From NCBI GenBank assembly GCA_037043015.1, contig CM073331.1, forward strand, positions 3,183,501-3,247,500: a DNA stretch of 64,000 bases. The letters run 5' to 3'. Positions 31,961 through 59,215 of the stretch are shown piece by piece (the stretch's first letter is position 1; every line of letters starts with the position of its first letter). The notes below the pieces were generated by a model that was not told where the DNA came from, made no database searches, and saw only the letters and a list, made by a program, of their open reading frames with translations. A program made the translations under genes and the position numbers. This DNA comes from Bryum argenteum. Taxonomy: Eukaryota > Streptophyta > Bryopsida > Bryales > Bryaceae.

Positions 31961-32327
31961 TAAGGAGTGGATTTGCGAGGGAGTTTGAATGCTTGAGAAA
32001 GGTGCTTTTCCGCAAGCCGAGTACCGCAAGAGATGGAGTGGAGATCTAGCTTGCTCGCGTCGCGGTCGGGTTTTGTCGAGGGTTGCGCGCTTGGTGGTGT
32101 TGGTGAGCGAGGTCGCTGCGCTTGACAGTGGTGAGTGGGTCTGGCTGGGCCGCTCTTTGTGTTTTTAGCATGTTGCTCGCTTTACATTCGTTAGCTTGAT
32201 AGACCATATTTCCGATTAGTGCATGTGGTGCCCACTCATGGCGAGACCGTGTTACGATCTTTTCAATGATTGTCTTTGCAATGTGGTTTCGAGGTTGAGA
32301 AATTCGGAGTTGTGAGAGGAAGAGGAG

Positions 32328-35300
32328 ATGGTGAAAAAGGAGAAGAAGCCCTCGTTAGAGGGTATGCAGCGGGGGCAGAAGGAGAAGAAGTCGGCGGTTT
32401 TAGCTGACAACGAAGAAGAGCCCCAGCTTGTTACGATCGACGATGTGGAGGACAAGATTTCGGTCCTGCGCAGAGGTGCACCTCCTCCAGCGTTATCCTT
32501 TGAGGATTTCAGGGATAGCTTTGGACTGAATGGGACGGGCATCAATCCCCACAAAGCTTCCCACCAAGGCAACGTTCTGCAGTCCGATTTGACTGTTGTG
32601 TTCGGGCAACAGCGAGGTAAATCCGGATACTGGATTGGGGACGTCAAAGATTCGAAAGTCAAGGCTGCTTGCTAGATTGTACCCCATAGTTTATCAAAAA
32701 CCGTGTGTTATCAAAACGAAGCTCATTGCTGTGCAGTTTGCAATTGGAATTGTGGCTGATGTAGTGAAGGGTTTAGATGTAGATTGGACGGGTTTTGCGT
32801 TCATCACGAATAAGAATCAGCGTAGTGCATGGCAGAAAAAGATGAAGACTGCCTTAGAGATGAAAGCTTCACTTAGTGGTAGGACTTTGAGTGCCGTTCT
32901 GGAGGAGGAGGATTTAGATACTCTTATGCAGGGTGACGTTGTGAATTTCAATCCAAGTCAGCTGCAAGTCAAAGGGGTCGGTTCAGGAACACCAGGACAG
33001 AGCTCGAGCTGGATCGAGAAGAAAAAGCAAGAGACTTCGGACATGCAGCGCTTGGTGGAGTTGGAGCTAGAAGCTGTGAAGATTGATCTTCAATTGCTTC
33101 TGAAGGAAAAGCACTTGCTCGATCAGAAGGTGGAGGGCGTCCGGGTGATGGTGGAGAACATGAATCAGACAGCTGAGGAGTTCAGGGCGACAATAAAGAA
33201 TTGCGAAGTGGAGGTTGAGGCGACCAAGATGCAGTACGGGTTGGAAATGTTTCTGTCGGCCAATGCCAAATCTGTGCTCCAGTATAACTCGCTGCTTGCT
33301 GATCAGGTGAGCCAACACATGTTTGATATCCCTCCTTTCTGTGTTTGCTTCATGTATGCTTGTGTTTGATCAATTCCCTTCTTGTCCATACAGGTCAGCC
33401 AAGACGCGAATAAAGAAAAGCTGCTACGCAGGGAGGCATTTCTTGTGGGTCAGCAATCCATGTTGGCCTAGCAGGTGTTGAACTTGCGAAGCCAGAAGCC
33501 TGGATTATCCTTGCAACCCCACCCCATGTGCCTTTCCACAGAAATAGAGCAAGTGGAGGGTGATACTGTGAATATTACCCACTGTGTTTTGTGTTCAAGT
33601 CCATTTCCTTACAATGATATTGTGATTTGTAGCTGCAGGCACCTCTACCACCCATGGTGTGCCTTGTCGTGGTTTAGTACATCTGTTAAATGTGTAGTGA
33701 ACACGTGTTATGTAGTTCACCCAGATTGGTACAAAAGCTTTGGGTTCGGGGAACATCCAATTATTCTGGAAGAGAAGTCTGAGGCGTTGGATTGTGAGGA
33801 GCAACGAAACATCGCCATCTCTGAAAGAACAGCTGCTGCCAAGCGCAATGGTGCGGATATTGGTATGTCCCCACTCCCTTCTTGTTTACTTAGTGTATTC
33901 CAGTCTGGGTTGAAAGCAATGTAGTACATTTTTTGAATGTATGGTATGTCTATTTGTGGTCTTATGTGTGGTCTTATGTGTGTTATGAGAATGAAATTTG
34001 TTACTGTTGTAGTTGATGTACAGTGCTGGTAGACAGAATGTAGTTTGTGTAGGTCAATTGTTCTACTTCAGGTCTATTAATATACACTACATTTTCTAAA
34101 TGGTAATAGAATATACTACTGGACTATCTCTTGGGTAAATAGAATGTTGACTTGTAGTCTGTTTAAGTGTTAGTAATGGTATAACATAAGTTCCTAGGTC
34201 TACAGTGACATAGTTTAGGTAGTACTCTTGATATATGCCTGAGTCACTCAGCATACTGAGCAAGAGTCCATTGCTAGTGTGTTTTATGTAATCAGAGGTA
34301 TGTACATGTAGACTATGGCTTCTTTACACTAAATAAGTATATGATCAAACTATGTAAGTATATGTTGGATTGTGTTAATATATATTATACTATATTTTCA
34401 ATCACATGTTGGAGTCTGTTCTAGTATCACTTGGACTATCATGTTACACTTCATGGGCTACGAAGATTATCAGTATGCAATCCACTTACATACTTTGTGG
34501 TGTAAAATGTAGGCTCCTCCCAGCTGCCAATTCTTGGTCAAGCTTCCATTTGTACTGGGACATACAGCTTGGGAGAGACAAGTCAGGCTCATGCCCCACC
34601 GACTCGCACAAGAGAAGCAGAGACACCACTCAAAGAATTGGTTGTGCAAGATTGTCGTAGTAACAAGTCCTCCGAGAAGAAGAAGTCCTCTGAGAAGATT
34701 ACATCTCTCGAGGTCCCTGCTGGATGCATCATGCCACCGAAGGAGTTATTTATCCCAACTGTGGGGACTGAAAAGGAGGTTGTTGGTGCTCCGGGTCCTC
34801 CATGCACTGAAAGGATTGATAGAGAGGTACAGTGGCTGCATGATAAACCTCGCTTCAATTTTTATTCCAAGTATGTGTATTGATTAGCAAGTGTTTATGT
34901 CTATGTAGGCTCCTGAAGACGTAGTACTTGAAAGCACACTTGGGAACCAAATCCAAGAACACGGTTCTCAGGGTTCAAGTGAGCATGATCGGTCCCTGGT
35001 CGAGGCAGACAACGACGTTGCTGAGGACCCTGAGCCTGCATCGGCAATGGCAGAAGAAGAACCGCAGGAGGTTGTTTCCAATGAAGATGAGGTAGCCAGA
35101 TTAAAGGCTACCATTGCTGAACTCACAAAGCAGCAAGGGAGCTCGAAGGGAGTAGTGCGTCGGCCACCAGCGTTTGAGGATGTCCCCGGGCAAATCTTAA
35201 CATCAACTGTAAAGACAAGGAAGGTTTCTGATGTTGGGAAAGGTGGCGATTCTCCTTCACCAAACTCGAGGAAGAAGGGAAAGGCCGAGAAGGTTAGGAC

Positions 35301-35478
35301 CCGTGCAGATGGGCCTTCCGAATCTTTGGAGGTGACTAGGAGTGGCTCAAAGAAGTCGAAGAAGAAGAAGGTGGGGGCAGCAGCAGATGACACCAACGTT
35401 GAAGAGGATGATAACATGACGCTTGATGGTTTTGCTCAAAACCTTCCTGCCAAAGTAAAGCGAACCTTGAAGAAATAG
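32328..35478 (+). CDS. unknown coiled-coil protein with RING-like zinc cluster
   Basis: Exons proposed: 32,328-32,616; 32,690-33,306; 33,475-33,862; 34,513-34,826; 34,909-35,478. Every join is GT-AG and in phase, giving 725 residues. The N-terminus is lysine-rich (MVKKEKK); a coiled coil lies around residues 215-290. A RING-like cluster follows: C339-x2-C342, C356-x-H358-x2-H361-x2-C364, C375-x4-C380 (CRHLYHPWC core), then HPDWYKSFGFGEH. The C-terminal third is charged and low complexity with KKSKKKKVG-type basic runs, suggesting nuclear location. The last cysteine pair is C-x4-C, not the usual C-x2-C, so E3 ligase activity is only a possibility. An alternative acceptor at 33,392-33,393 would add 27 codons ending in an in-frame TAG (see findings). 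The first intron's acceptor (32,688-32,689) was chosen because it is the nearest that keeps phase. Confidence 0.65.
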
Positions 35479-35875
35479 ATCAAAGTTCGCTTGATATGTG
35501 GGAATGGGGAAGTCTGTGTATGCAGACATGTTTCTTAGAAGCAGGTGGGTTAGGTGTGTTGCATATAGGTGTGTTGATGCAGTGCATTAGGAAGTGCATA
35601 ATGGGATAAAGTCTCATGTATTTTGCTGGTTGGGTAATTGCATCCAGCATTTTATGATATTTTGAGTTGGTTCACATCCCCATCAGGGTTGTCTTATTAG
35701 ACACAATTTTGGGAATGTCTGTCTGATTTGTCGTATTGGACATGTCTGTTAGACGTCGAGTCGACGAAAATGTCGACCGTACCAAAAATTACATAGTAAA
35801 AAACTTGCTCAGATTTACCTTGAGGTAAAAAGCTATTTTCCTACGTGGCGTAGGGTTGATAATGACGTGGAAAAT
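35479..35875. other. 3' flank of gene 3
   Basis: Probably 3' UTR plus spacer; no gene. GACGTCGAGTCGACGAAAAT with TGTCGACC near 35,752-35,780 may mark the start of the neighbouring mobile region. Confidence 0.4.
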
Positions 35876-36215
35876 CAAAATACACGTCACAGTGGGCGAC
35901 CTCGCTAGGCGACTGACGGTCGCGCCGGGGCGAACGTCGCCGGCCGCCTATCGCGATCGCCGACGCTTCGCCGCTGCATGGCGAGAAAGCGGCCGGCGGT
36001 CCAAGATGGAGACCGGCGGTCGCCCCGGCAACCGCTAGTAGGCGACATCCCGGTCGATCTTGGCGGCGATCGCGATCGCCGAAGCGTCGTCGGTCGCTTA
36101 TAGCGATCGGCGGTCGCCCTGGCAACCGCTATTAGGCGACCGCCGGTCTAGTACTTCGCGACCGACGATCGCCCAGGGCGATCGTCGGTCGCTTATGGCT
36201 ATCGGCGGTCGCCCT
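35876..36215. repeat. GCGACCG/CGGTCGC array A1
   Basis: A dense GC-rich run of GCGACCG, GCGATCG and their complements (for example CCGGCGGTCGCC, ATCGTCGGTCGCTTAT) in both orientations. It lies downstream (3') of the hAT transposase on its coding strand. Confidence 0.9.
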
Positions 36216-36586
36216 GGGGGTAGTGCCCATGTGGCGATGTGTGTGGTGACCAGCACTATGGTTGTATATGAAACAAGAAAAATATATTCATATTGGTACA
36301 AAATGAGCTTCAAAGCATTTTTATGAATACCTTTTTATCGGAAACAAGGTCAATGGTGCATTTCATAGTACAAATTTGCTCATGTCTATAATCATAGTAT
36401 TCATATATATGATGTAACTATTACATATACCAAACTATATGTATTATACTCCCGAAACATACTAGGATACCAAAGTATTGTAAGCTAATAGTTGCCCTAC
36501 TTGCAGTACATTGTAGTATTGTACCGAGTACTAACAATGAACTTCGTGCTTCCAATCCAAAATAACAAAATTCTAATAACCCGTCT

Positions 36587-39500
36587 TTAGGTATCCTTCA
36601 ATGTATACGTATCGTCGCTTGATACTTCATCTGCGTTTGGATCGGTTTCACCTAGAGAGTCATCAGTGCTTTGGTCGCCATCCTTGTCTTCATCCTCTGT
36701 CTCATTGCGTACTTCACACTCAACCTCACTCGCCAAATTGCGCAATTCCGTGTCCGTAGTTGTTTTCTTGTTCACTGTAACGAGGCGCTTCAAGGGCCGT
36801 GAAGCATTAGTGATCCCGTTTGCGTTCAGTGGTAGATGGCGCATTGTACGTGTATTCAGATTATTGGATGAAGCAATCCCAGCATGGACTTCTTCATGTA
36901 CGCGTGCTCCTTTCCGACATCGTCGATCGTGTGCCTTCCTCAAACGCTTCTGGCCTCGTGTAATACGATTGCGAGGTTGTGTAGATGGCCCGACGTCTCG
37001 TGCCACTGCCAATGCCCGGTTGCATGTTGGACTTGTTGGTTCTATCTTGACCTCCATCTTCGGCAATACCATACGAGTTGTATGGGCCCCTTTGGGTTGG
37101 GTAACCCTTGGGAACAATTGTTGTAGAGGTACATCGGAGTCATCTCTGTTAAGAGTTGAATTCCTTGATCGAATGGTTGAAACTCTAGGTGACCCCACTT
37201 CCATGCAACCTGAATTGGATACATCGTCAGGTTCCACTTTAATTTGGTCCATTTGAACTCCTGTTGTGGTAACCGTGCCCTTCACACTCTCAAGTTTATT
37301 GTCGTTGTTAGAGTGTGGGCTGCCTTTAAGTGGACCAATGTTCTCTTCATCCATCCGGTTTACCAAGTCTTGTTTCGCTAGGCAGGTACTCTCTTGGAGT
37401 TGTAAATTTGCCACTCCTTCTCCTTCGTGTCATTTGGCAAATACCGCAAACTGGCGAGGCAGTTGTGGAACATCCTGGTCGTCATCGAACTCAAACGGAT
37501 CCTTGACATGAATAGTCATGTTTCCTTCGTTGTCGTTCCAATTCTCTAGGTCGTCGTGTTTGCTACCGTCATTGACATAATTGTCGTCATCCGCCTCCGG
37601 GTTATCCATGAATACACCATCATCCATTCATTGTCTGGTACATAGTCTTCTTCGTCAGAGTCCTCTTCTTCTAAGTAATTTTTGTACCACGTTCTCGGCG
37701 ATTTGGTACGTTTCTGGCGCTTGAGTTTGGCGTTCGCACAGATGTACACAAGGTCCTCTGCTTTGGAAGTTGACAACCGATTCCTCACTTTGTTGTGCAC
37801 GAAAGAGTACATGCTCCAATTCCTCTCATATGATGAAGCTGAACATGTTAATGCCAAAATCCTCTTCGCAATTTTTGGCAAGGCATTCCCCCCGACTTGA
37901 TGCCACCATTGATGTGGTAACAAGTCACAGTGAGCTGGATCAGGGGCCTCTGAATTGGTGTTAAATGGACCCGTCCTCTCCTCATATTGTATGAGTTCCC
38001 GCACCACTTCCTCATAGACCACTCCCATTGGGGCGCTAAGCTTCCTTATGACTTGGTTTAAAGCTCTTTTTGCTTCTCCATTGTTTTGAATTGCTCCAAT
38101 ATTTGTCAAATAAGGGTTCAACAAAGTCAGCTGATAGTGGAGGTGTCTGTGAGCATCATCTCCCATCGTTTTTGAAATGCATCCTCGTATTTTGTAGCAA
38201 TGTCGGGGATAGTTCGAATGGAGGTTCACGCAAAGAGAACACGTGTTCCTTAAGGTCCGACATGATCACATACGCCCACAGGCATGCTTTGGTACTTCCC
38301 CGTCAAACTCCCGAAGAGCTAGGAGTCTTGGTTCAACTACTTTTACAAACTTCGTACAATTCTCCCAGAACTCATCGCTCCTAATGCTATTCCGCACATT
38401 CCTTGCCTTTGTCTGTAACTGGTGACTGTTTTGCCTGTTGAACAATATTTGGACAAACACATGCCACTCCGGATCGATCACCATGTTGTTCAGAGGTTGT
38501 TGTAGCTTTAACAACCGCTCTATCATCAAGTAGTTTGTTGCAAATCGAGTCTGAGGTGGTACCTTGAGCTGCAGCTTCGGCGAGTACTTCCTGAATAGAG
38601 CAAGGGGGACGTGGGACCCCTTAATAAATGTGCACACTCTCTTGGCTTGCTCCACCAAATGCTTAACCCACGCCTCTTTCCCCCAATCTTCCAGAAGGAG
38701 GTCTAGAATATGTGCCGCACAACCTTGTCCATACAAGTGAGGATAGTCTATCTGCAACTTCTTCACAGCACCTAACATGGAGCTTGCATTGTCGGTGCAT
38801 ATCTGCACGATGTTTTGTGGTCCAACCTCCTCTATGTACTTCGCCATTTCATTTGCCACATAAGCGATGTCCTTTTTCTTCCCTGTAGTATCCACTGATC
38901 CCAAAAACACCTCTCCCACTGGGCAAACGAGCATCATGTTAATGAGTGGTCTGCTTGTGACATCCGACCACCCATCTGAGCATATTGTTCCTCCGTACTT
39001 CTCGATAGAAAGTTTTGTTCGATCCTCTACCGACCTTTGCACAGCTGCCTTCTTCGCATCAAGCATCGTAGTCCTAATAGCATGATACGAGGGTGGTTGA
39101 TATCCACCAATACCGGCCTTTGCTGTCTCTTGAACGGCACTTATGAATCTTTGGACAAGACGACATTGAATGCAATGTTTGCCTCATAGAAAAATGAAGC
39201 CCACTTTGCATCCAAATTTTGCATAATGGCAAGATCAAAACTATCCTCCATACTCCTTTGCCCATGTCGCCGTCCACTAGAGAGTGTAGAGATCCTTTGT
39301 CCATTCTTTGCCATGACTCCCCTTGTTAGAGGATGGCACCGATTAGACCTTAGGTTAGGGGATGGCACTTGTACAGAGTTGATGCGAGGGGTATCTATGT
39401 TCTCTGTAGTTTCCCTTGCCGCATATGGTATGTCGGCATCCACTCGTGAGTCAGGAACAACATCCGCCTAAGAAATGTTGTTCTTTGGAACTATCCCTCC

Positions 39501-39692
39501 GCAGTCACGGAATAGCTCGAGAACTCCACGGGGCAACCTCGTACACCGGGGTAATGGGGAATTGTGAGGATATCCGAAATGAGCTAATGCTCGTTGCCTT
39601 ACAAAGACTGTGTTTTTTCCACAGAATAAGCACACGCGAGTATTTGGCTTGTCGTTCCGTTCCGTGGATACTCGTAGCCACTCGTCTCATAT
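36587..39692 (-). pseudogene. hAT-family transposase, decayed
   Basis: In 5'-3' order on the minus strand: a zinc-finger segment (VCLFCGKNTVF...ALAHFGYPHNSPLPRC, about 39,690-39,471); a linker with FFYEANIAFNVV; a DUF659 core (TICSDGWSDVTSRPLINMML, then VQICTDNASSM and GCAAHILDLLLEDWGK, 39,066-38,266); the hAT dimerisation region (CSASSYERNWSMYSFVHNKV, 38,229-37,630); an acidic tail; and a 275-codon Arg/Lys- and Asp/Glu-rich extension (37,414-36,587). The D-D-E type residues of hAT enzymes are visible in SDGW, CTDN and SSYERNW. About five interruptions are seen: a TAG at 39,468-39,470, frame changes near 39,165, 38,265-38,130 and 37,625, and a TGA at 37,430-37,432. An enzyme of this kind would cut and paste DNA with 8-bp duplications. 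Either side lie GC-rich arrays (A1, A2). It is probably inactive. Confidence 0.88.
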
Positions 39693-39936
39693 GCGAGTGT
39701 CTCTTCTATTATCTGGTACCCCGTTGGATTGGGAAGAATGCTCCATGTTCTGGAACCGCACCTCCGCCGCTGCAATGAAACCGGTGATGACAACACGCAC
39801 TACAAGGGCTCAAGTTACTCTTTGCACATATAGACCGAGCAGGGGGCTTCTAATGGGGAGACCCAAGACAACGGGCCAAGCGCAAAGGAAAGTGGCTTCG
39901 AGCCCGTGAACGACTCCTTATATACTCCACAGCCAG
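39693..39936 (-). promoter_or_regulatory. upstream region of hAT transposase
   Basis: On the minus strand GGAGTATATAAGGAG (about 39,932-39,918) is a good TATA box, directly followed downstream by a GC-richer leader. Array A2 lies immediately upstream of it. Confidence 0.55.
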
Positions 39937-40071
39937 ATCGGCGGTCGCTCTAACAACAACGCTGTCGCGCCATGTGAACCGGCGGTCGCCCTGGCCTTGA
40001 CTTCATCGCGCTAGCTGGACCGCCGGTCGCCCTAGCCCTGACCCAGTTGGACCGCCGGTCGCCATAGCGAT
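39937..40071. repeat. GCGACCG/CGGTCGC array A2
   Basis: A shorter array with CGGCGGTCGC and ACCGCCGGTCGCC motifs, placed just upstream of the transposase TATA box and also 3' of the ORF at 41.3-40.6 kb. Confidence 0.9.
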
Positions 40072-40606
40072 GACAGATTGTTCCGACGAAGAGCACTTTA
40101 CTCTCCAAGTCAATATCCATGGTCCACGCAGTACAGCTATTATTAACTAGAATCCCGGAGACCATGTGGCTCAAAAATGTTTGATTCGCAATAATGCTTT
40201 TCTTTTTAAAAGAAAAATAAAAATAAAAATAAAGGGAACATGCGAAGGCAAGAGAGAGAACAATAAGGACTCATATTAGAAACTAGAGTTTTAACTTCTC
40301 TTGCTCCAAATCCAAAAAATAAAGGGATGAATATTGCTCAATCCACGTTTCCTAAATAATTAAGAATGATAAAAATTGCCATGTATCAATGACGGTACCT
40401 CGGACATTGAAGGTTTTTCCTTTATGCTTATACCACATGCAATAGTGAGATTTCATTCACCAAGAATATTTAAATTGAAGAAAATCAAAAACTTCATATT
40501 CACATTCAACGTTTTTGCATACAAAATGGCAATTGCACTTAGTGTTTGGTATTGAGTACACTACTTTTCTACAATTGCTAAAAAAACGTGATTAACTAAC
40601 TACCAG
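40072..40606. other. spacer between hAT and unknown ORF 1
   Basis: AT-rich (AAATAAAAATAAAAATAAAG near 40,206), no gene. It probably includes the 3' UTR of the minus-strand ORF to its right. Confidence 0.5.
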
Positions 40607-41311
40607 TCATTCTTCGCTTGGGCCCCCTTCATTGTAAAGTTGGCTTGGCCCCCCTTCTGTACAAACTTGGCTTGGCCCCCCTTCATCAAAATGTGCTCCA
40701 CCTTCCTCCATCGTTTGGTTCGGCTCCCCTTCATCCACTTCTCGCCTTTCGGTCCCTTCTTCTTCCGAATCTGACCAAACTATGTCCTCATCAGGGATTC
40801 CTCCTTTGTAACCCCTAGGCGTTGTAAGCCCTTCTCGTGGGTTGGCCGCTGCATAAGGAGCTCGCGGAATATGGGGTTCTGTTGGCTTAATTGTTTGAGG
40901 GGATTTTTTAAACGTCCTCCAATCCACCTCCCTCTGCAAAATTATCTCCGCGTACACCATTTGTGCTATGTTGTACGAAACCTCGTTGTTCACCACATGC
41001 ACACCGGCGTAGAGGAACTTCCACACTTCAATGCATCGTTGCACAAATTCATCGTGATGGCAATAGTGCAAATTTGCGCAATTCAGGCGGCGATGAAACT
41101 CGTGACGATAGTGTGGAAACAAATGGCCGATGTGGCACCAAGCAATGTACCACTTGCAAGTCTTAAGGGTCCGCGGTTCCTCTATTTGCGCCCACCCCGG
41201 AAAAGCATGTTGCGTGGGATCTATGAGAATCTTGTGAAATCTCCTTTGCTTCTTTCCTTTCCTCTTGCGGTCCTTGTCTCTCGCTATCTTCCGCTCCTGG
41301 CTAGGCGTCAT
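40607..41311 (-). CDS. unknown conserved protein, paralogue 1 (short)
   Basis: An intact 234-codon ORF; the ATG at 41,311 begins MTPSQERK. A basic N-terminus (DKDRKRKGKKQRR) precedes a Trp/Cys/His-rich core: HAFPGWAQ, YIAWCHIGHLFPHYRHE, CANLHYC, HDEFVQRCIEVW, NEVSYNIAQMVYAEIIL, VDW. The core is about three-quarters identical over roughly 87 residues to the ORF at 46.4-44.9 kb (counted by eye). After an IPRAP...NPREGLT motif the tail is acidic and ends in EGGPSQ-type repeats (three copies), then a stop, where the other paralogue continues into a coiled coil. I know no family for it. It lies between GC-rich arrays A2 and A3 and reads the same way as the hAT gene. Helical DNA- or protein-binding is a guess from composition only. 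Confidence 0.7.
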   Translation of the reverse strand: MTPSQERKIARDKDRKRKGKKQRRFHKILIDPTQHAFPGWAQIEEPRTLKTCKWYIAWCHIGHLFPHYRHEFHRRLNCANLHYCHHDEFVQRCIEVWKFLYAGVHVVNNEVSYNIAQMVYAEIILQREVDWRTFKKSPQTIKPTEPHIPRAPYAAANPREGLTTPRGYKGGIPDEDIVWSDSEEEGTERREVDEGEPNQTMEEGGAHFDEGGPSQVCTEGGPSQLYNEGGPSEE

Positions 41312-41589
41312 GGTCACCCAAATGCTAACCAAGGAAGAAATTTTTTAAACTAACTCAAAACAAAGTTATATCTATTCCGTGGACTAACACAGAATTTAGA
41401 AAACTCGAAAATCGGGCAGCATGTATGTGTAAAATGCACACGTGTGGCACGTGTGTGCCAATCACCGTACGCTCTAGCGCTTGAACAAGCAGGCAGCAAC
41501 CAGAGGTCGACACCAGACAATGCGCAAGGCCCGACACGTGGAGGTGAAAAATGGCGACTGGCGGTGTCCGCGCGCGTATATGTAACCCT
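41312..41589 (-). promoter_or_regulatory. upstream region of paralogue 1
   Basis: Homologous to the region upstream of paralogue 2: GGTCGACACCAGACAATGCG here and GTCGACACCGGACAATGCGC at about 46,620. Array A3 follows directly beyond it. A TATA-like TTACATATAC (minus strand, about 41,585-41,576) lies at the array edge. Confidence 0.5.
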
Positions 41590-41900
41590 GGTTCTAGGGC
41601 GACCGCCGATCCAGCTGAAGGGCGAGCGTCGGTCGCCAGGGCGATTGCCGATCCACCCGATGGGCGAACGTCGGTCGCTAGGGCGACCGCCGATCCACCT
41701 GGTGGGCGACCATCGGTCAGAGGGCGCGACCTCCAAATGGGAGGGCGCGACGTATGCGTGGGGGCGCGACCTCTGGATCACGCGACCGCCGATGCAGCGG
41801 ACGGACGAACGTCGGTCGCTGGGGCGACCGCCGATCCAACTGGTGGGCGAACGTAGGTCACTAGGCGACTGCCGGTCCAGTTCATGGGCAAGGACTAACC
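41590..41900. repeat. GCGACCG/CGGTCGC array A3
   Basis: A 42-bp-like unit, GCGACCGCCGATCCA-CTG followed by GGGCGAACGTCGGTCGCTAG, recurs several times. One part (about 41,718-41,785) has GGGCGCGACCTC variants. Each unit holds the 7-mer in opposite orientations. Confidence 0.92.
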
Positions 41901-41949
41901 TTCCTCCCAGCGTGTTTGTCAGAATTATCAAAGTAGTAACGAATTTATA

Positions 41950-43450
41950 TAATGACTTTTGGTGGCAAGTATTTGGAACCATCAAAACTAAAAACAAAAA
42001 AAAAATAAAAAAAAATAAAAAAAAAAAAATAAAAAAAAAAATACATATATATATGGGGCAATAATGTGATTTTAATACTTGGACTTCCTAATAATGACCC
42101 TATGAAAATGATCGAATCATAAAAAAAACCATAGGGAAATCGCATCCATATGTCATAATTTAGGTGCACCCACCACAACTTCGAATGATAAGGGAAAAGA
42201 GAATGAAAGCATACAGGAGGTGATACGAACACTTGAATTAGGTAATAAGGGCCTCATAAATGTAATGGAAGAATTCATAAAACCATGGGAGAATGCGAAC
42301 TAAGTGGTTGAGTTTATATGGGGATATTTGAATTGCGGGGTCTGAAGCACGGGGGAATATGTAAATATATAAGTAAAAAGGGAGCGGAAGGGGTGTTGAT
42401 AACTTTCCTAGGTGATTCATATTGTGTAAAAAATATGGTATAAATCTTAGGGGCACAGGAGGAATGAAAGTATTTTTCCCGAATTTCCAAAAATTAAATA
42501 GTCATGTGAAAGTAGGCGGTGTGCGCACATGCATACGAAAACAGAGTGGGGAATGTAATTTGAACATTTGGACTACACTAAAGAGGTACATTAGTGTTAG
42601 ATTTTTATAAGATTTGAAAATGCTACAAGTTTTTACTTTTGGGATAAAAATTTTACCAAGAGTATCGATTCCAATACTATGTAAGGATCCCCATCTTCAC
42701 CTTTGTAGAGGGTACAAATATTGACTAATAGTAAAAACTTATAGCCTATTTATGTATATTAGTGTATCTAACACTAATCTACCTATTTAGTGTAGGTAAT
42801 ATGGATTATATAAAAATAATGGAACCATCAAAAATATTATAGGACAACCTGTACTATTTTTCCCAAATTAATATAGAATTTTCGAACTAAGTAGAGCTTT
42901 AAATAATAGATAAAAAATAGTTAAATGGAGAGAAAAAATATTTTAAATAGAATTGGACTATGTAATAACTACCTTATGAACATGATGGAGCTATAAAAAA
43001 AAATCGTTGGAGTAAAGGATCTATAGGGTGGATTTTGGTTGCAAGCACTTAGAAACACCAAAACTTCAAAAAATAAGAAAAAATAGATAAAGGGGGTAAG
43101 AGGACAATTTAAACCCTTAGACTACCTAATGATGACCCTATGGAAATGATGGTGTTATTTAGAAAATCGTGGGGATATGTCATCTATAGGTCATCATTTA
43201 CTTGTAAGTCATTTGAATGAGTAGAATATTGAATGATATACGGAAAATAGATTTGTGGAAAGAGATAACGATTTTAAAACTTGTGTTGACTAAAAAAGAC
43301 CTTATAAAAATTATGGAAGAACAAAATTTCCCGTAAGAGAAACGTATCTACATTTTATGATTTACTTTGACTTTGTAGGATGCTAAGTAATAGAGGAAGT
43401 TATACTAAAGGGGGGAGGAGGTGGTTTTATTATTTTCTCTAACCGTATTA
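41950..43450. repeat. divergent ~165-bp satellite-like repeats
   Basis: A recurring block, GACCTATG-AAATGATGGA-C-AT-AAAAAATCG, preceded by TTTAA-ACTTGGACTA-CTAAT, appears near 42,100, 42,247, 42,970, 43,135 and 43,300, with weaker traces near 42,570 and 42,810. The clearest spacings are about 165 bp, close to nucleosome length. AAGTATTTGGAACCATCAAA near 41,970 and a relative near 43,039 are also shared. No gene is present. Confidence 0.7.
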
Positions 43451-43596
43451 AATATATTAAATCATGAAAGAAGCCACATGGAACTTGGATTTACATGGAA
43501 GGAAATACTTGGTGTTAATTTGATTCAACCTTGGCATGGTATAGGTCTATAGGATACTTGGTGTTAACTTCATTCAAAACCTCCAAATCGCGCGAC
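43451..43596. other. short spacer before array A4
   Basis: Contains a local duplication (ATACTTGGTGTTAA twice, 43,505 and 43,555) and no gene. Confidence 0.5.
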
Positions 43597-44216
43597 CGCC
43601 AATACAGCGGATGGACGAACGTCGGTCGCTAGGGCGACCGCCGATCTAGTTGATGGGCGCACGACGCTGACAGGGCAACCGGCGGTCTACGTGATGGGCA
43701 AGCACCCAAGGAGAAAGTGTCCGCGAGCCTCCGCGCACCCCTCCTGCTGGGGCGACCGCCGATCCAGGCGATGGGCGAACGTCGGTCGCTAGGGCGACCG
43801 CCGATCCAGCTGATGGGCGAATGACGCTGACAGGGCGACCGGCGGTCTACGTGATGGGCAAGCACCAAGGAGAAAGTGTCCGCGAGCCTCCGCGCACCCT
43901 CCTGCTGGGGCGTCCGCCGATCTAGGCGATAGGCGAACGTCGGTCGCTTGGGCGAACGTCGGTCGCTTGGGCGAACGTCGGTCGCTAAGGCGACCGCCGA
44001 TCCAGCTGATGGGCGAACGACGCTGACAGGGCGACCGGCGGTCTACGTGATGGGCAAGCACCAAGGAGAAAGTGTCCGCGAGCCTCCGCGCACCCTCCTG
44101 CTCGGGCGACCGCCGATCTAGGCGATGGGCGAACGTCGGTCGCTAGGGCGACCGCCGATCCAGCTCATGAGCGAACGACGCTGACAGGGCGACCGGCGGT
44201 CTACATGATGGGCGCA
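43597..44216. repeat. GCGACCG/CGGTCGC array A4 with ~160-bp higher-order repeat
   Basis: About four higher-order units begin near 43,597, 43,750, 43,909 and 44,103. Each combines the 42-bp GCGACCG/CGGTCGC unit, a GACGCTGACAGGGCGACCGG segment and an AAGGAGAAAGTGTCCGCGAG segment. The third unit has two extra copies of an 18-bp GGGCGAACGTCGGTCGCT repeat. High identity between units shows recent amplification. The open minus-strand frames in it are repeat artefacts. Confidence 0.93.
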
Positions 44217-44917
44217 AATATCTGCTTCCCCCCCTTTTGCTACAAATCTTTTTCTGCATATTTGAAATCATGTACGAATCATTGCCTTTCGAGGTTTTGG
44301 GGGGTTTGTAAAAATATTCATTGACTCTAAATACTTGCAACTAAATCCCACCATATATTTATACGTAACTTCAACAACTTAGTTACGATTCCAAATTTTT
44401 ACAAATTATTTATCATTACTTCATCGTGGATTAATACTAATCAAAGCTTTCCAAAATTCAATATCATTATATACACATATGGAATGGTATACACGACATA
44501 ATTTTCTAAAAGACCACTGTCCAAAGTATCCACCAACCTACCAACATACAAACCTACCAACTTAAATAATTACCAACATACAAACCTACCAACTTAAATA
44601 ATTACCAACCTACATACCATTCTAAGAACCTTTTTTTAGATATTTCCAAATCATGCATTTCAAATAAAAAATAAAAAAATACAAAGAATAAACAAGATGA
44701 TTAAAATAACACCGTGCGCATATATACAAATAATAAACATAACATCGTTCAACGGGTATCTTACTAGTAAAAACATATCATATAATAAAAAAGATACATT
44801 GTATAACATCCAGCCTAGCACTTATCTCCCAACTTTCAGTTCACAAATAAAATAAAGTAAATGGATATAACCAACACACCAACGTCTTTCTAAAATTTGA
44901 TCTTCTTCCATTATACT
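44217..44917. other. AT-rich spacer, 3' flank of paralogue 2
   Basis: No gene. Contains a short duplication (CCAACATACAAACCTACCAA, about 44,535-44,605). Confidence 0.5.
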
Positions 44918-46486
44918 TTAGATTTTTTTTAGATGGTCCCAGCTCCGACATTTCTCCTTTGTCTTATTTGCAATACGTAGATCTTCGATCCTTGCATTTA
45001 AGAACCTCTCCTCTTCTGCGAGCACAAGTAGCTTTTTGACCAACTCCTCAGTTGTTTCATTGCGCTGTGAACTTTGACCCTCTTCTGCAATATCCACGGT
45101 TCCATCTATTCTATTGAGGACTAACTTTTCCTTGTTCCCCTTCAATCTTATTGATGCTAGGTTCACCCTTTTGATCTCAACTCTCAAGGCATCGGACGCC
45201 GAAATGAGTTCCTTTAGCTCCTTCTCAAAATGACCTTGGTCCTTGGCTCCTTCAACCATAAAATCCTTCTCGCGACCCCAATCATTGACCACAAACCATT
45301 CGTCGACGCGCTTGTATCTCCTATGCACATCCTCGAAATGTTTCATCTGCTTTATGAGCTCTTCCTCATAATCGACCTGATCCGATGCAACCAGAGCTGG
45401 GAGAACATTCGTCGCCTCCTCTTGGATCTTCATTTTTGCATCCTTGATTACCTCTATGTCATGTTGGAGTTCAACACACTTTGCCTGTTCGTATGACAAA
45501 GCATGAAACAAATATTCATAATCCTCATAAGCCTTGTTCAACAACTTCATCCACGAATCATCGTTTTCATTCGGGCGATTCGCTTTGAAGACTACTTGAA
45601 CTTCCTTCTCCAGCTCTACTTCTTCATTTCCTTCTCTTTCTGGCTGTTCAATCGTTTCCATTGGATATTCTAGAGTCCCATCCTCTACGCTAACATTTGT
45701 TTGAGGGGAGGCGCTCATAGCGGGCCGAACTATAACTTCGGGTGTTCCCAAAGTACAAGCACCAAACATTGCTTCAACCTCCATGTATTCAATGACATCC
45801 GCTTCTCCTTCTGTTCGTAGGTCCTCGATGTGCTTCATAGGTGCATCAATCACATCCAAATCTTGCACGCTTGTTTCACCCACATGAAAATGTTCAACGC
45901 CACCAATAGAACCTTCTACAAGAGGAGTATGATGCTTCCTCTCCTTAACCTCTTCTTCATCAGAATTAGGATTTACCCAAACATACACATGATCAGCATC
46001 CCCATCTTTCCGATGCCTTGCTGCCGTAAGTCCTTCTCGTGGGTTTTCTGTCAATGGGGCTCTTGGAATATCTTGCTTGGTTGGAAGGAAGAATTGAGGC
46101 GATTTTTTCATTGAGCTCCAATCCACCACTTTCTCCAATATTACCTCTGCATACACCATTTGAGCAATATGATACGAAACCTCGTTCTTGGTGACATTCT
46201 TGCCTTTATAAAGGAACCTCCACACTTCAATACATCGTTGCACGAATTCGTCATGCTTACAATAGTGCAGATTTGCAGCATTTAATTTCAAGTGCGTCTC
46301 ATGTCGAAAGTGTGGAAACAACTTGCTGATGTGGCACCAGGCGATGTAATTCTTCACTGTTGTCTGACTCCACACACCCTCTTCGGTCTCCCACCCCGGA
46401 AAAGCGCGTTGAGTGGCATCTTGGAGAATACGGTGATTCCTCTTCGTGTTTTTCCTCTCTTCTTGCGTCGCTCCCCAAGTACTATT
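44918..46486 (-). CDS. unknown conserved protein, paralogue 2 (long, coiled coil)
   Basis: Open from 46,486 to a stop at 44,918 on the minus strand. The conserved core (YIAWCHISKLFPHFRHE, AANLHYC, HDEFVQRCIEVW, NEVSYHIAQMVYAEVIL) matches paralogue 1, as do the preceding ILQDATQRAFPGW and ATQEERK. No ATG lies upstream of the core in this frame. Either a small upstream exon supplies the start (an AG lies just before TACTTGGGGAGCG), or the start is lost. A GTG at 46,375 falls inside the conserved region and is unlikely to be used. Beyond the IPRAP...NPREGLT motif come an acidic stretch and long heptad-rich segments (for example KQMKHFEDVHRRYKRVDEW and RVEIKRVNLASIRLKGNKE), about 300 residues absent from paralogue 1. 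The family is unknown to me. It sits between arrays A4 and A5. Confidence 0.65.
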   Translation of the reverse strand, partial: NSTWGATQEERKNTKRNHRILQDATQRAFPGWETEEGVWSQTTVKNYIAWCHISKLFPHFRHETHLKLNAANLHYCKHDEFVQRCIEVWRFLYKGKNVTKNEVSYHIAQMVYAEVILEKVVDWSSMKKSPQFFLPTKQDIPRAPLTENPREGLTAARHRKDGDADHVYVWVNPNSDEEEVKERKHHTPLVEGSIGGVEHFHVGETSVQDLDVIDAPMKHIEDLRTEGEADVIEYMEVEAMFGACTLGTPEVIVRPAMSASPQTNVSVEDGTLEYPMETIEQPEREGNEEVELEKEVQVVFKANRPNENDDSWMKLLNKAYEDYEYLFHALSYEQAKCVELQHDIEVIKDAKMKIQEEATNVLPALVASDQVDYEEELIKQMKHFEDVHRRYKRVDEWFVVNDWGREKDFMVEGAKDQGHFEKELKELISASDALRVEIKRVNLASIRLKGNKEKLVLNRIDGTVDIAEEGQSSQRNETTEELVKKLLVLAEEERFLNARIEDLRIANKTKEKCRSWDHLKKI

Positions 46487-46704
46487 TTACGTTCGCAATT
46501 GTAGTCATTGTTACCTCCGATCACGGAAATGCCGCTATGATGTGATGTTAGATACAAAACACCAAAAATAGTGCGAGTCACGTTGGCCTCCAATTGAGCA
46601 AGCAAGTGGCAACTTTGAGTCGACACCGGACAATGCGCAACACCACGGCACGTGGATCGAAAAAGTGACGACTACGGCCAATTACGATTGTATTTAACCT
46701 CCTG
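46487..46704 (-). promoter_or_regulatory. upstream region of paralogue 2
   Basis: Related to 41,480-41,570 (the GTCGACACC-GACAATGCGC block followed by CACGTGGA). On the minus strand GGAGGTTAAATACAATCG (46,703-46,686) is a weak TATA-like element beside array A5. Confidence 0.5.
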
Positions 46705-46900
46705 TGGCGGGGCGACCGGCGGTGTCGGCGACATCGTTAGGGCGACCGCCCGGTCCAGTGTTTCTTGCAAGACTCGCTCGGGCGACCGGCCGGTCCAGTG
46801 CAGCACTTCTCCGGGCGACCGCCGGTGCGGCTTCGTAAGAGTTTCGATCCCGGCCTCGGCGGAGAGCGCCGAGGCGACCGACACTCTGCAGGGGCGACTT
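46705..46900. repeat. GCGACCG/CGGTCGC array A5
   Basis: GGGCGACCGGCGGTGTCGG, GGGCGACCGCCCGGTCCAGT, GGGCGACCGGCCGGTCCAGT and relatives. It lies just upstream of paralogue 2, at the same relative place as A2 for hAT and A3 for paralogue 1. Confidence 0.9.
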
Positions 46901-48198
46901 CGCGAGAGCTCCCGCTTTTTTTCTTGGATCCTCTTTATGCAATATTCAAATTTTGAATTAACCGATTCAAGCATCTCCCCATTCCCCCTTCAATCCCCCC
47001 TCATCCCCCCTCATTCCCTCTCATTCCCACTCACTTCTTCCTATATCTCATTCCCAATTGAAAATGATTCTCATGGTCATGGGCATTTTGCCAAGAGCGG
47101 TGACCATGATACATGAAAAATGATTTTATGCTCATTGGATACTCTTGTGGTGTAATATGGATTTAGATCGATACAAGTTTAATCACAATTTACAAAATTA
47201 TAATTTTCAAAATTCTCAAAATTCTCAACATAAAATACTCATCAAATATTGGTTCCAAAAGTACGCTCAGGAATGGGTTGATAAGAATGTCCGCAAATCA
47301 TTAGTCTTCTTGACTTCAAATATTTACCTTCATATATTGGTCACTCATTTTTTCTCCAAACATATAATATGTCATGATATATCACCTTTTAATTTGGTAA
47401 GCAACTATTTCTCTCAGTGCTTTTTAGGGTATATGCACTAATTCCATTCACTTAATTGTATTTCAAGGCCTTATTATTTGACTTGCCAAAATTTTCAAAT
47501 TCCTCCCCCCACTCATTTTAACCAATTTCATAATGTTATGAGCCCATAAACTCATTGCAAGGATAATCTATCAGTCGGATATTATATACGGAGATCTTAT
47601 AATTTATTAAAGGCTCCACTGAAATAAAAAGAAACTAGAAATTGTTCTTGAATGTGATGTTAAAATATGAGGTGCAGTTTTGGTACAGAAATGGTATCTT
47701 ATCTAGATGCTAGGAATTGACTACCTTGGATTACATTCTTAGATTGTAGGTATTGAATCGTTAGATTCATTAAAGTGTTTTCATGCATTGAAGAGGCTGA
47801 TGCTCTATAAATGAATTCACATTTTATCAATTATTATAAATGATTAGGCACGATATGACTTCTTAAAATATACACCATACAAAATAATATATACCATTCA
47901 TGCCTACAAAGAGGACGAGGAACTCTCACCCCATCCTTCCTCCCATTCATTATTATCCATTTACACATCTCTTGTCCATTTCTTAGGAATTGAATGATCA
48001 TAAAATGGGAATTATGGGACCCACGATCCAAAATTCCTACCCTATGCATACCTTCCTAATTTTTAAATTAATACATTATAAACTAAAGGGCTCTTTTATT
48101 CCTCCCCCATCCAATATTCATCCTCATCTCATGATTCTCATCCTCGTAGGAGCTGCTATGAAACTTGATGCCCTCGCATTCAACATAAAGAGGTGAAA
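46901..48198. other. intergenic DNA, no gene seen
   Basis: A C-rich tract of TCATTCCC / CAATCCCCCC motifs (46,978-47,030), then AT-rich DNA with chance ORFs only. Confidence 0.5.
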
Positions 48199-48510
48199 TA
48201 GGGCGACCGCCGATTCAGCTCATGGGCGAACGTCGGTCGCTAGGGTGATCGGCGGTCCTGCTTTGGGCGAACGTCGGTCGCTAGGGCGATCGGCGGTCCA
48301 GCTCATGGGCGAACGTCGGTCGCTGGGGCGATCGGCGGTCCAGCCAATGAGTGAACGTCGGTCACAAGGCGACCGCCGGTATACCTTATGGGCGAACGTC
48401 GGTCGCTCATGGACGAACGTCGGTCGCTGGGGCGATCGACGGTACAGATAGGGCGATAGCTGGACCGGCGGGCGACCGGCGGTGCACATTTTGTAGACCG
48501 CCGGTCGCCT
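48199..48510. repeat. GCGACCG/CGGTCGC array A6
   Basis: Many copies of GGGCGAACGTCGGTCGCT alternating with GGGCGATCGGCGGTCCAG, ending in GACCGGCGGTGCACATTTTG and GACCGCCGGTCGCCTT. No ORF of the P1/P2 type lies beside it. Confidence 0.92.
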
Positions 48511-49440
48511 TATCATTGTGCTTAAGAACGCGACGGGCAGTCCATTTTCACACTTTGCGAGTTCCTCCTTTTCGCGCATTGACTAGTATCGACTTCAGAG
48601 TTGCTGCTTGCTTGCTCGTAGAGGGACTTTGCGTTTCTACGAATTTTTCTTATGGAGGCACTACCCGTTGTAGCGGGCACATCCATGGTGCGCCATGACC
48701 GAGGTCGGATTGCGAAGAAGCGCAGAGCTATTGTCGGATGCCATGTATTCACTTTATCTTCCCTTACATGTTTATTGGTGTAAAACCCGTGTTCAGGTGA
48801 CTCGTGTATCGTTCCAGGGATTCTGTGAAGTGACCAAGACAAGTAGTGCTAAAACAACCAAACCCACAAACGTTTCTAGTCCCAACTTATGTTTTAGCCT
48901 TGCAGGGCAAGGGTATCCCTTTGCAAGAGGGGATCCACAAAGACTCTTTCCCTTATGTTTATCGTAGCGGAAACTTCCACACTTAGACTCTACACACACA
49001 CACACATACTAAGGCACACATTACGTCCTCACAACTAATCCATCCTATCCGTCCGAACTAGCAGGTCACGCAGGCCGTCCTGGTTACCCTATCACCCTTA
49101 CTACAATGAGAGACTCCAAGAGCTCCGAATCCGGCTAGAAGACGTCTACACGTATTCAGGTCACGTACTGCGCTTCATCCGTCCTCTGAGACTACAGAGG
49201 AACCCAAGTCTGCGGCAGCTGGAGGTCGGATTGGAATCCTGCCTCACACACTCTACTCCCAGACCCTCCCAGACCGTAAGTGTTTACCACAGCAGTTTCC
49301 CTCTCCCAGACACCTAGACCAGTTCAAGACACAAGGCACTCAAGAATACGCCCAACCCAACTTCAACTCCACAGAAACGATCTAACAAAGAATCCGGATT
49401 CCTAACTCTCAACTCACAACACACAAAGTAGATCCGGCTT
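48511..49440. other. spacer to the left of the Athila-like element
   Basis: No gene recognised; small ORFs only. A CA repeat occurs near 48,993-49,007. Confidence 0.45.
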
Positions 49441-51620
49441 TGTGAGGTTAAATCCCGGTGTTCCGGTTTCTAACTCACAAGTGGGCCGTGGGGTGGGGTG
49501 CAAGCAATACGACCTTCCAAGCAATGGACACTAAACTTCATTCATGCATACAATTTCTAATTTGAAGTCAACAAAGAAGCACGACCATTCAATCAAGTCT
49601 CAATTTAATTCCAACAAGTAACTCCCGTAGTGAAGTGAGTTCTCCAAAGCATACCTAGGAGGTTCAAATAGCCCTCATTTGATCACCAAGGGCCTAGGGC
49701 TCAATTGTGGGCACAAAACAAACAAAATGAACACGCAAGGCCTCCAAAACGCATATGGACCAAGAGGTACAGCACACAAATTAGGGTTGGAAGAGGTTGC
49801 AAATCACACCTAAACACCTACCTTAATCCTAAGCACCCCACTCACATATGAATGCTAACAATCCACTAGGCATACAATTCAACACTCCTAACACAATTTA
49901 GGTTTAATTGGGGAATGTTGGGCAGCGCTTCCGCACTCGACCCTAATCCCCTAAATTTTAACTTAAGGTTTCTTGGTTGGTTCTTAATTTAAAACGGCAG
50001 GCGTTTCGCGCTAATGACAAATTCCCGATTTTTTCACTTAAATTTATAAATTTCAGCCTAAATTTTGGGCAGCGCTTCCGCGCCACCCTTAAACACAGTA
50101 CCCCCTAATTACACGTCTAACATTCCAGCAAGCTTATTCATTCAAATAGACAACCATCACACACATAAGATAACATAAATCACAAACAACAATCAAACAA
50201 TCAATTTTTTGGCAATTACTTTCGCCATTTTCAACATAGAGGTCCACAAATTTCTACTAAGTACTCTAACAACCAACCATAAATCAATACAAACAAGGAA
50301 GGAGGAAGGGGGCTCCCTCAATCTGCTGCCACCAGTAAGGTCCCTTCGGTAGAACGACGATTTCTCCCTCGTCCTTGCTCCAATGGGGGCGAGCTTGGTC
50401 CCATTAGAAAGAAAACTCGACAATGCTCCTAGATCTCTAAGGCACGCCCCCCAATTCCTTGCCAATCGTGAGATCTCGTCCTTCAAAGTCGACCCTTCAA
50501 CTCTGCCGTCACCAGTAAGGGTACTTTGGTAGAATTGCGATTTCTCCCTTGTCCTTGCTCCAATGAGGGCAAGCTTGGTCTTGTTGGAAAGAAAACTTGA
50601 CAACGCTCCTAGATCTCTAAGGCACGCCTCCCAATTCTTCGTCAATCGTGAGATCTCGTCCTTCAAAGCCGACCCTTCAACTCTGCCGTCACCAGTAAGG
50701 GTACTTTGGTAGAATTGCGATTTCTCCTCGTCCTTGCTCCAATGAGGGCAAGCTTGGTCTTGTTGGAAAGAAAACTTGACAACGCTCCTAGATCTTTAAG
50801 GCACGCCTCCCAATTCTTCGTCAATCGTGAGATCTCGTCCTTCAAAGCCGACCCTTCAACTCTGCCGTCACCAGTAAGGGTACTTTGGTAGAATTGCGAT
50901 TTCTCCCTCGTCCTTGCTCCAATGAGGGCAAGCTTGGTCTTGTTGGAAAGAAAACTTGACAACGCTCCTAGATCTCTAAGGCACGCCTCCCAATTCTTCG
51001 TCAATCGTGAGATCTCGTCCTTCAAAGCCGACCCTTCAACTCTGCCGTCACCAGTAAGGGTACTTTGGTAGAATTACGATTTCTCCCTCGTCCTTGCTCC
51101 AATGAGGGCAAGCTTGGTCTTGTTGGAAAGAAAACTTGACAACGCTCCTAGATCTTTAAGGCACGCCTCCCAATTCTTCGTCAATCGTGAGATCTCGTCC
51201 TTCAAAGTCGGCAGCCACTCTCAAATTGAAAACTTGTCAGGGACACGGAAACAGATGATAAGAATATGTAGAAACTAACAAGAACTGACAGGAGCTTGAA
51301 TTAACAAGAAGAGTACACGAACAACAACAAGAGAGATGAGCTAGAGCTTCAAGAGATGCGTTGTCGAGACTGAGGTTGCCCTCAGCCTCGACTCCTATAT
51401 ATACTAGCTAAGAAGAAGGTTCTCCAGAACCTTCCTCAACCTAGGACCTTCTAGGACCTTCCAAGAACTTCCAAGACCTTCCAGAAGCTTCCAGGGCCTT
51501 CCGGAAACTTCAAGGACCTTCCAAAAACTTCCAGAGACTTCCAGGAACTTCCAGAAGTTTCCGGAAGCTTCTAGAACCTTCTAGAACCTTCCTAAGTTGT
51601 CTACCTAGTACGTGGCCGTG
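49441..51620 (-). repeat. 3' LTR of Athila-like element
   Basis: About 2.18 kb, near-identical to 59,674-62,209 but about 356 bp shorter, nearly two 180-bp repeat units. A TATA-like CTATATATACTAGC region (51,391-51,404 on plus coordinates) and many GAACCTTC/GGAACTTCC repeats lie in its promoter-proximal part. Confidence 0.9.
50325..51215 (-). repeat. 180-bp tandem array in 3' LTR (five units)
   Basis: Boundaries marked by TTCAACTCTGCCGTCACC occur at 50,496, 50,676, 50,855 and 51,035; the outermost units are slightly diverged. Read on the minus strand, each unit gives a 60-residue peptide containing KDEISRLTKNWEACLRDLG and FLSNKTKLALIGARTREK. Confidence 0.95.
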
Positions 51621-58825: not shown

Positions 58826-58851
58826 GCAGATTACTATAAATAGTAATCTGC
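58826..58851. other. leader hairpin 1
   Basis: A perfect inverted repeat: arms GCAGATTACTAT and ATAGTAATCTGC separated by AA. Confidence 0.85.
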
Positions 58852-59195: not shown

Positions 59196-59215
59196 GATTA
59201 CTAAAAATAGTAATC
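59196..59215. other. leader hairpin 2
   Basis: GATTACTAAAAATAGTAATC, the same motif with one mismatch in the stem. Confidence 0.75.

What the first reader, a model, noticed from the sequence alone, without database searches (positions are those of the whole stretch)
35876..48510. Six GCGACCG/CGGTCGC arrays paired with a hAT transposase and two paralogous unknown genes
Arrays A1-A6 are confined to this 12.6-kb stretch. All three sizeable reading frames here run on the minus strand. Each has an array a short distance upstream of its start (A2 for hAT, A3 for ORF 1, A5 for ORF 2) and another array downstream (A1, A2, A4). The arrays share unit sequence, and upstream DNA between arrays and genes is also shared by the two paralogues. 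Inference: the arrays are the subterminal/promoter repeats of one hAT family, likely transposase-binding sites, and the unknown gene is an accessory or captured passenger carried by it. hAT elements are known to have subterminal motif clusters, but arrays this GC-rich and higher-order, with a co-mobile second gene, would be new to me.
Basis: partly seen in the sequence, partly recalled or inferred. Interest (0 to 1): 0.82.

Follow-up and report, generated by a model that had tools for sequence, protein, structure and literature searches.

The report
CpG-rich switch arrays at transposon promoters
In a stretch of probably plant DNA, a broken jumping gene and two copies of an unknown gene carry the same cluster of GC-rich binding-site-like repeats just in front of their promoters, which suggests that they are run by one control protein, although the protein and the element's ends are not shown.

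Summary
In detail: 49 of 53 GCGACCG words lie at 35917-48508 (2.49 expected per window), in six arrays near a broken hAT gene and two paralogous unknown genes. Three corrections. (1) The 42-bp unit occurs only in A3, A4 and A6; all six share a GACCG-N-CGGTC dyad (57 of 66 window matches in the arrays), with 39 of 51 spacings 18-23 or 41-42 bp. (2) A2, A3, A5 and A6 face a gene start and end 17-22 bp, from last dyad centre, before an A/T-rich, TATA-like stretch; A2 abuts TATATAAG of the hAT gene. (3) A 44-bp promoter block of ORF1 and ORF2 recurs inverted at A6, so A6 probably served a further, now truncated, plus-strand gene. ORF1/ORF2 evolved under constraint (dN/dS 0.225). No element ends were found and no genome is held, so 'subterminal repeats of one hAT element' is unproven. 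Best reading: promoter-abutting operator arrays of a two-gene transposon system, bound by an element-encoded protein, working like TnpA of Spm or VANC of VANDAL. A new variant of a known kind, unproven.

The parts
35890..36218 (.). Array A1 (8 dyad sites; spacings 80, 20, 94, 33, 22, 20, 20), downstream of the hAT gene
36587..39746 (-). Broken hAT transposase gene: ATG 39746, BED-like Cys/His stretch 39468-39686, DUF659 in 38266-39183, hAT dimerisation in 37546-38265, C-terminal piece 36587-37429 without Pfam match
   Evidence: the BED-like reading and the link of the C-terminal piece to this gene are by eye, Pfam gave no BED hit
39917..39924 (-). TATA-like box TATATAAG of the hAT gene, 17 bp from the last dyad centre of A2, 178 bp before the ATG
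39931..40066 (.). Array A2 (4 dyad sites; spacings 41, 41, 32), directly upstream of the hAT gene
40607..41311 (-). ORF1, open from ATG to stop, 234 aa, no Pfam match; basic start, Cys/His-rich middle
41483..41525 (-). Promoter block of ORF1 (aligned length 44 with A6)
41590..41890 (.). Array A3 (10 dyad sites; spacings 18-23, 42, 76), upstream of ORF1; TATA-like TACATATA 22 bp from last dyad centre
43585..44215 (.). Array A4 (17 dyad sites; spacings 19, 23, 41, 75-77) with 160-196-bp higher-order repeats, downstream of ORF2
44918..46486 (-). ORF2, 522-codon open frame; N-terminal domain like ORF1 (the first residues of it lie in another frame), long charged C-terminal part
46596..46638 (-). 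Promoter block of ORF2
46705..46900 (.). Array A5 (3 dyad sites; spacings 103 and 59, not in the 21-bp register), upstream of ORF2; TATA-like TTAAATA 22 bp from last dyad centre
48195..48515 (.). Array A6 (15 dyad sites; 12 of 14 spacings 18-23, others 29 and 11), facing a plus-strand start on its right; weak TATA-like TTAAGAA 21 bp from last dyad centre
48574..48617 (+). Promoter block in inverted orientation next to A6
   Evidence: score 46 with either of the other two blocks, 60 shuffles at most 26 and 25
48652..48783 (+). Short open frame after the A6 block (43 aa from ATG), perhaps the start of a lost or truncated gene; no match to ORF1, ORF2 or Pfam

Best explanation
The arrays are operator arrays: clusters of a CpG-rich dyad site (GACCG-N-CGGTC), mostly spaced by about two or four turns of the helix, placed directly before the TATA region of the genes of one transposon system and also present behind the genes. 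A protein encoded by the system binds them as a dimer. I think the ORF1/ORF2 protein the likelier binder and the hAT transposase the second candidate. Bound, it activates or un-silences both its own promoter and that of the hAT gene, and may also mark copies for transposition. Shown: site, spacing, position at promoters, sharing between unrelated genes, past selection on ORF1/2. Inferred: that anything binds, which protein it is, that it is a dimer, and that the outcome is activation or anti-silencing.
For: Shared dyad: 57 of 66 window matches (up to 2 mismatches) in six arrays; whole simulated windows hold 7-15 (5 simulations); 39 of 51 spacings are 18-23 or 41-42 bp, among them 4 of 7 in A1 and 2 of 3 in A2, whose other sequence differs. 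Position: the four gene-facing array edges have an A/T-rich stretch 17-22 bp from the last dyad centre (6-7 of 7 A/T), against 2 of 8 other edges with 6 (the 17-22 range was set after seeing the four). TATA matrix P for gene-facing edges 0.008, 0.030, 0.162, 0.702; other eight 0.33-0.98. The promoter block is shared by three array-promoters. ORF1/ORF2 dN/dS 0.225 over 150 codons, bootstrap 0.09-0.39; 0.268 over all 194 aligned codons. CpG observed/expected 1.20-1.52 in arrays, 0.78 in the rest; at CpG positions of the 22-bp unit 10 of 246 bases differ from consensus, at the others 141 of 574, two ambiguous columns left out, whereas in two stretches of the neighbouring LTR pair CpG bases change more (7 of 63 against 17 of 1210). 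Precedents: VANC binds short motifs in tandem repeats of VANDAL noncoding regions (passages of PMC5735166); TnpA activates Spm, correlated with demethylation (passage of PMC10398659).
Against: No binding data. ORF1/2 have no recognised DNA-binding domain and no usable structure (mean pLDDT 38.0 and 53.7). A crude heptad test found no coiled-coil signal in the ORF2 tail (P 0.376). The TATA-like stretch at A6 is weak (P 0.70) and A5's three sites are not in the 21-bp register. The hAT leader resembles the block only weakly (3 of 398 control pieces as high; single shuffle P 0.142, 0.02, 0.088). A1 and A4 are not at promoters of any gene seen. Copies inside one array are not independent, so spacing statistics overstate significance. 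CpG conservation in the unit is partly due to how units were picked; direct array-to-array comparisons show less contrast or none (18 of 124 CpG against 22 of 227 other within A4; 11 of 85 against 37 of 162 for A3 with A6 and A4). Only one locus is known.
Confidence: 0.4

Rival explanations
1. One reading: the arrays are the subterminal transposase-binding repeats of one hAT family, and ORF1/2 is a captured passenger or accessory gene.
For: hAT gene flanked by A1 and A2. hAT elements do have subterminal repeat clusters: Ac AAACGG within 200 bp of each end (passages of PMC3260210), Herves CG/AATTCAT (passages of PMC3143072).
Against: No convincing target duplications or ends. A2 lies between two genes, not at an end, unless A1-A3 is one two-gene element. 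Sites are 11-bp dyads at TATA-like boxes, unlike the short asymmetric Ac and Herves motifs.
Confidence: 0.25
2. The arrays are binding sites of a host transcription factor, in a promoter type that several genes and transposons of this genome have picked up.
For: Promoter position and block. Another gene (about 32300-35478) also has a CpG-rich repeat region in front (sequence; CpG o/e 1.4), with a different unit.
Against: No other stretch of this window has such an array. Array genes here are a transposase and a two-copy unknown family.
Confidence: 0.17
3. ORF1/2 belong to an independent transposon with its own arrays, and the hAT gene only lies next to it or copied its promoter.
For: A1 and A2 differ in unit from A3, A4 and A6; the hAT leader shares little with the block.
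Against: The same dyad, 41 bp apart in A2, stands directly before the hAT TATA box.
Confidence: 0.13
4. A GC-rich minisatellite spreading by local duplication, without function.
For: A4 has higher-order repeats of 160-196 bp with 92-96% matches, so recent local duplication.
Against: Core positions are far better kept than flanks within the unit, spacing is kept between most of the diverged arrays, and four arrays stop at a similar distance from A/T-rich stretches.
Confidence: 0.05

Closest known systems
VANC / VANDAL anti-silencing system (Arabidopsis; a Mutator-like element by recall)
   Same: Element with several genes; short motifs in tandem repeats in noncoding parts, including upstream of VANA21; arrays that gain and lose units quickly (passages of PMC5735166).
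   Different: VANC21 motifs are arrayed in one orientation and AT-richer (YAGTATTAY); here the transposase is hAT and sites are CpG-rich dyads. ORF1/2 were not compared with VANC proteins directly; they match no Pfam family.
TnpA / En-Spm and other CACTA elements
   Same: A second protein binds repeated subterminal motifs; TnpA activation of Spm correlates with demethylation (passage of PMC10398659). Soybean Tgmt repeats can form palindromes (passages of PMC2613891).
   Different: CACTA transposase, 12-bp En motif; no CACTA transposase among the 19 frames scanned with Pfam; CACTA ends not sought.
Ac/Ds and other hAT elements
   Same: hAT transposase domains; clusters of short sites (passages).
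   Different: Ac and Herves motifs are short and asymmetric; Ac sites lie within 200 bp of the ends; here long arrays also lie between genes and no ends were found.

Membership tests
hAT superfamily transposon | hAT transposase with C-terminal dimerisation domain | tested here: met
   PF04937 4.3e-37 and PF05699 1e-5; gene broken
hAT superfamily transposon | short terminal inverted repeats with 8-bp target duplication around the unit | tested here: not met
   none outside the repeats beyond chance (8 hits, shuffles 4-10) and none among hits viewed in ten flank pairings; decay may have erased them. The gene is filed as a hAT transposase gene; the arrays are not filed as hAT ends
hAT superfamily transposon | N-terminal BED zinc finger (usual, not universal; by recall) | tested here: inconclusive
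   Cys/His stretch at 39468-39686 looks BED-like by eye; no Pfam BED hit
VANDAL/VANC-type anti-silencing | motif arrays in noncoding regions of the element | tested here: met
VANDAL/VANC-type anti-silencing | VANC-family protein | not tested
   no Pfam match of ORF1/2; no VANC sequence was compared
VANDAL/VANC-type anti-silencing | loss of DNA methylation on binding | not testable with these tools
   no methylation or binding data
CACTA (En/Spm) | tnp2-type transposase and CACTA ends | tested here: inconclusive
   no CACTA transposase among Pfam matches of 19 frames, which are not all frames of the window; ends not searched for

The most novel reading that the evidence does not exclude
A two-gene hAT transposon system whose second protein (ORF1/2 family, unknown fold) binds CpG-dyad arrays at its own and the transposase promoter and keeps them from being silenced: a further, independent origin of transposon-encoded anti-silencing, beside TnpA of Spm, MURA of MuDR and VANC of VANDAL.
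Probability: 0.2. Interest if true: 0.8.

Novelty: new variant of a known kind. Interest (0 to 1): 0.5.

Why it matters
Element-encoded proteins that act on repeat arrays or ends and undo silencing are known from Spm, MuDR and VANDAL elements (passage). A hAT element with the same logic, built on CpG-rich dyads whose methylation could itself switch binding, would suggest that such systems arise repeatedly and would give a simple test: does the protein bind the array, and only when it is unmethylated?

Tried and rejected
Element ends: 8-bp duplications with 14-bp ends over 34.5-50.5 kb gave 22 exact hits, each with at least one end in an array, and 26 hits with up to one mismatch, 8 of them with both ends outside arrays; a later control with 8 local shuffles gave 4-10 such hits, so these 8 (one of them, 43533-44488, happens to span A4) are chance level. 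Duplications of 8, 9 and 10 bp in ten flank pairings: hits viewed beyond the shuffled count came from the repeats themselves; only the best four per pairing and length were printed, the rest were not viewed. A candidate hAT-like end CAGTGGGCGACC at 35890-35901 (hAT-like by recall) has no exact partner: GGTCGCCCACTG matches without mismatch only there. Homology of flanks: A5-right against A6-left scored high only because the two test regions overlapped by 101 bases, rejected; A3-right against A4-left is real but only a diverged duplication; A3-right against A5-right scored 59 against 45 at most in 20 shuffles, not followed.

'One perfect half-site per dyad': expected 11.4, seen 3 sites without one at 2 mismatches, but the effect fades at 4 mismatches (36 against 39.4), so it is a threshold effect. 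Coiled coil in ORF2: not supported by the heptad test. Fold search: not run because both models were too poor. Relatives of the ORF2 N-terminal part in viral contigs: none. A 17-bp unit in viral contigs: 8 contigs with one match each, taken as chance and not read. The 22-bp unit in bacterial and archaeal genomes: 0. PDB by sequence, ORF2 only: one hit at E 0.28, ignored. RNA families at 30000-49500: three hits below their gathering scores, two of them in A1, taken as chance. tRNA: 0. Hairpin folding of array units was run and not used. Block pattern search in the window: 1 match only, its own source.

In print: seven library searches for hAT subterminal repeats, hAT with a second ORF, GC-rich palindromic arrays, VANC, TnpA and hAT anti-silencing. 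I saw listings only (up to 20 papers each, often of far more hits) with the starts of abstracts; none showed a hAT system of this kind. One listing (PMC12730594, start of abstract only) tells of fungal DNA transposons with TET/JBP dioxygenases, another kind of transposon-linked demethylation. Five papers were opened: passages of PMC5735166, abstract, outline and passages of PMC10398659, passages of PMC3260210, PMC3143072 and PMC2613891. Papers outside that library were not seen.

Changed after checking against the calls: block coordinates, hAT ATG, place of the CAGTG candidate, the control for (one search added), and the wording.
Full report
What is there. The window is eukaryotic DNA, probably of a land plant (a DUF1997 gene, an LTR retrotransposon and a hAT gene; the plant assignment is inference). 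No genome is held for it. GCGACCG occurs 53 times, 49 of them at 35917-48508, against 2.49 expected. Six arrays result. Tandem Repeats Finder gives a 42-bp unit for A3, A4 and A6, 41 bp for A2, 20- and 95-bp units for A1 and none for A5; local alignment links A3, A4 and A6, all in the same orientation.

What the arrays share. A 22-bp consensus has 41 of its 43 window hits in the arrays, with 0-2 hits per simulated window in 10 simulations. Its core is a dyad, GACCG-N-CGGTC. With up to two mismatches 57 of 66 window matches lie in the arrays (A1 8, A2 4, A3 10, A4 17, A5 3, A6 15), where whole simulated windows hold 7-15. Of 51 spacings between neighbouring centres, 39 are 18-23 or 41-42 bp. 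In A3, A4 and A6 this is the alternation 19/23 that makes up the 42-bp unit. A1 has 20, 22, 20 and 20 besides 33, 80 and 94; A2 has 41, 41 and 32, both with different sequence around the core; A5 has 103 and 59 and does not fit. So about two or four helical turns separate most sites in arrays that otherwise differ. Copies within an array are related, so the periodicity test (R 0.70 at 20.5-21 bp over the 44 spacings up to 70 bp) overstates significance.

Where the arrays stand. A2, A3 and A5 lie directly upstream of the hAT gene, ORF1 and ORF2. From the last dyad centre to the A/T-rich stretch is 17 bp (TATATAAG, hAT), 22 bp (TACATATA, ORF1), 22 bp (TTAAATA, ORF2) and 21 bp (TTAAGAA, A6). At these four edges 6-7 of 7 bases are A/T; of the eight other edges two (A4 right, A6 left) reach 6; the range 17-22 was fixed after seeing the four. 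With a generic TATA matrix written from recall the four give P 0.008, 0.030, 0.162 and 0.702, the others 0.33-0.98: good for the hAT gene and ORF1, fair for ORF2, not for A6.

The promoter block. Between array and gene ORF1 and ORF2 share DNA (75% over 80 bp; whole promoters score 127 against 52 at most in 100 shuffles). A 44-bp block within it recurs to the right of A6 in inverted orientation (score 46 with each, 60 shuffles at most 26 and 25; places). A6 therefore probably faced a plus-strand gene. Only a 43-codon open frame follows, without similarity to ORF1, ORF2 or Pfam. The hAT leader resembles the block weakly (3 of 398 control pieces as good).

The genes. The hAT gene carries DUF659 and the hAT dimerisation domain, with three in-frame stops and two frame changes, unless introns explain the latter. 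ORF1 is open over 234 codons. ORF2 is longer, but its ORF1-like first residues lie in another frame (by eye). The shared N-terminal domain is 62% identical, holds several invariant Cys and His, and evolved under constraint: dN/dS 0.225 over 150 codons, bootstrap 0.09-0.39, with dS about 1.3 and so near saturation. Pfam, PDB by sequence (ORF2) and viral contigs (ORF2 N-terminal part) show no significant relative. Two AlphaFold models, each from two sequences, were too poor to use (pLDDT 38.0 and 53.7).

CpG. Arrays have CpG observed/expected of 1.20-1.52, the rest 0.78. In the 41 aligned units CpG bases differ from consensus in 10 of 246 cells, other bases in 141 of 574, two ambiguous columns left out. 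In two stretches of the neighbouring LTR pair outside its 180-bp repeats the trend is the other way (7 of 63 against 17 of 1210; five of the seven are transversions, so this is not a clean deamination signal). Array-to-array comparisons show less contrast or none (18 of 124 against 22 of 227 within A4; 11 of 85 against 37 of 162 for A3 with A6 and A4). So there is no clear sign of methylation-driven decay in the arrays, but protection is not shown.

Ends. No convincing target duplications with inverted ends were found: 8 hits with both ends outside arrays, 4-10 in shuffled DNA, and none better among the hits viewed in ten flank pairings. A reading that removes the double use of A2 is a two-gene element A1-hAT-A2-ORF1-A3 and a second, hAT-less one A4-ORF2-A5, with A6 as part of a third; this is a proposal from the gene order, not a demonstrated boundary.

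How it most likely works. Dyads suggest a dimer, regular spacing suggests sites on one face of the helix, and the stop just before a TATA-like box suggests control of transcription. Because the same sites serve an unrelated transposase gene and ORF1/2, the binder is most simply a product of the system. TnpA of Spm and VANC of VANDAL elements are precedents: TnpA binds subterminal repeats and activates Spm, correlated with demethylation (passages); VANC binds motif arrays in noncoding regions and induces loss of methylation (passages). hAT transposases bind clusters too, but of short asymmetric motifs in terminal or subterminal regions (passages). I put 0.4 on an element-encoded regulator acting on promoter arrays and 0.25 on plain subterminal transposase sites. 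Both need binding assays and a genome survey.

Noticed in passing
31300-32170: A second, different CpG-rich repeat region (GCGAGG-type, 31-bp period in part, CpG o/e 1.4 at 31440-32170) lies directly upstream of another plus-strand gene (about 32300-35478; weak RING match 2.7e-4, below the Pfam cut-off).
   Followed up: partly
49441-62207: Minus-strand LTR retrotransposon with 97-98% identical LTRs that hold 180-bp tandem repeats in different copy numbers, 5 and 7; exact LTR ends and target duplication not settled.
   Followed up: partly
42573-42795: Short AT-rich inverted repeat (30-bp arms 93% complementary, 163 bp apart), possibly a small non-autonomous element, between A3 and A4.
   Followed up: no
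41935-42162 and 43011-43200: Diverged direct duplication (72-74%) of noncoding DNA right of A3 and left of A4.
   Followed up: no
36587-37429: The C-terminal piece of the hAT gene is long, has no Pfam match and holds IKVEP and VKIEP stretches, which resemble sumoylation sites by recall.
   Followed up: no
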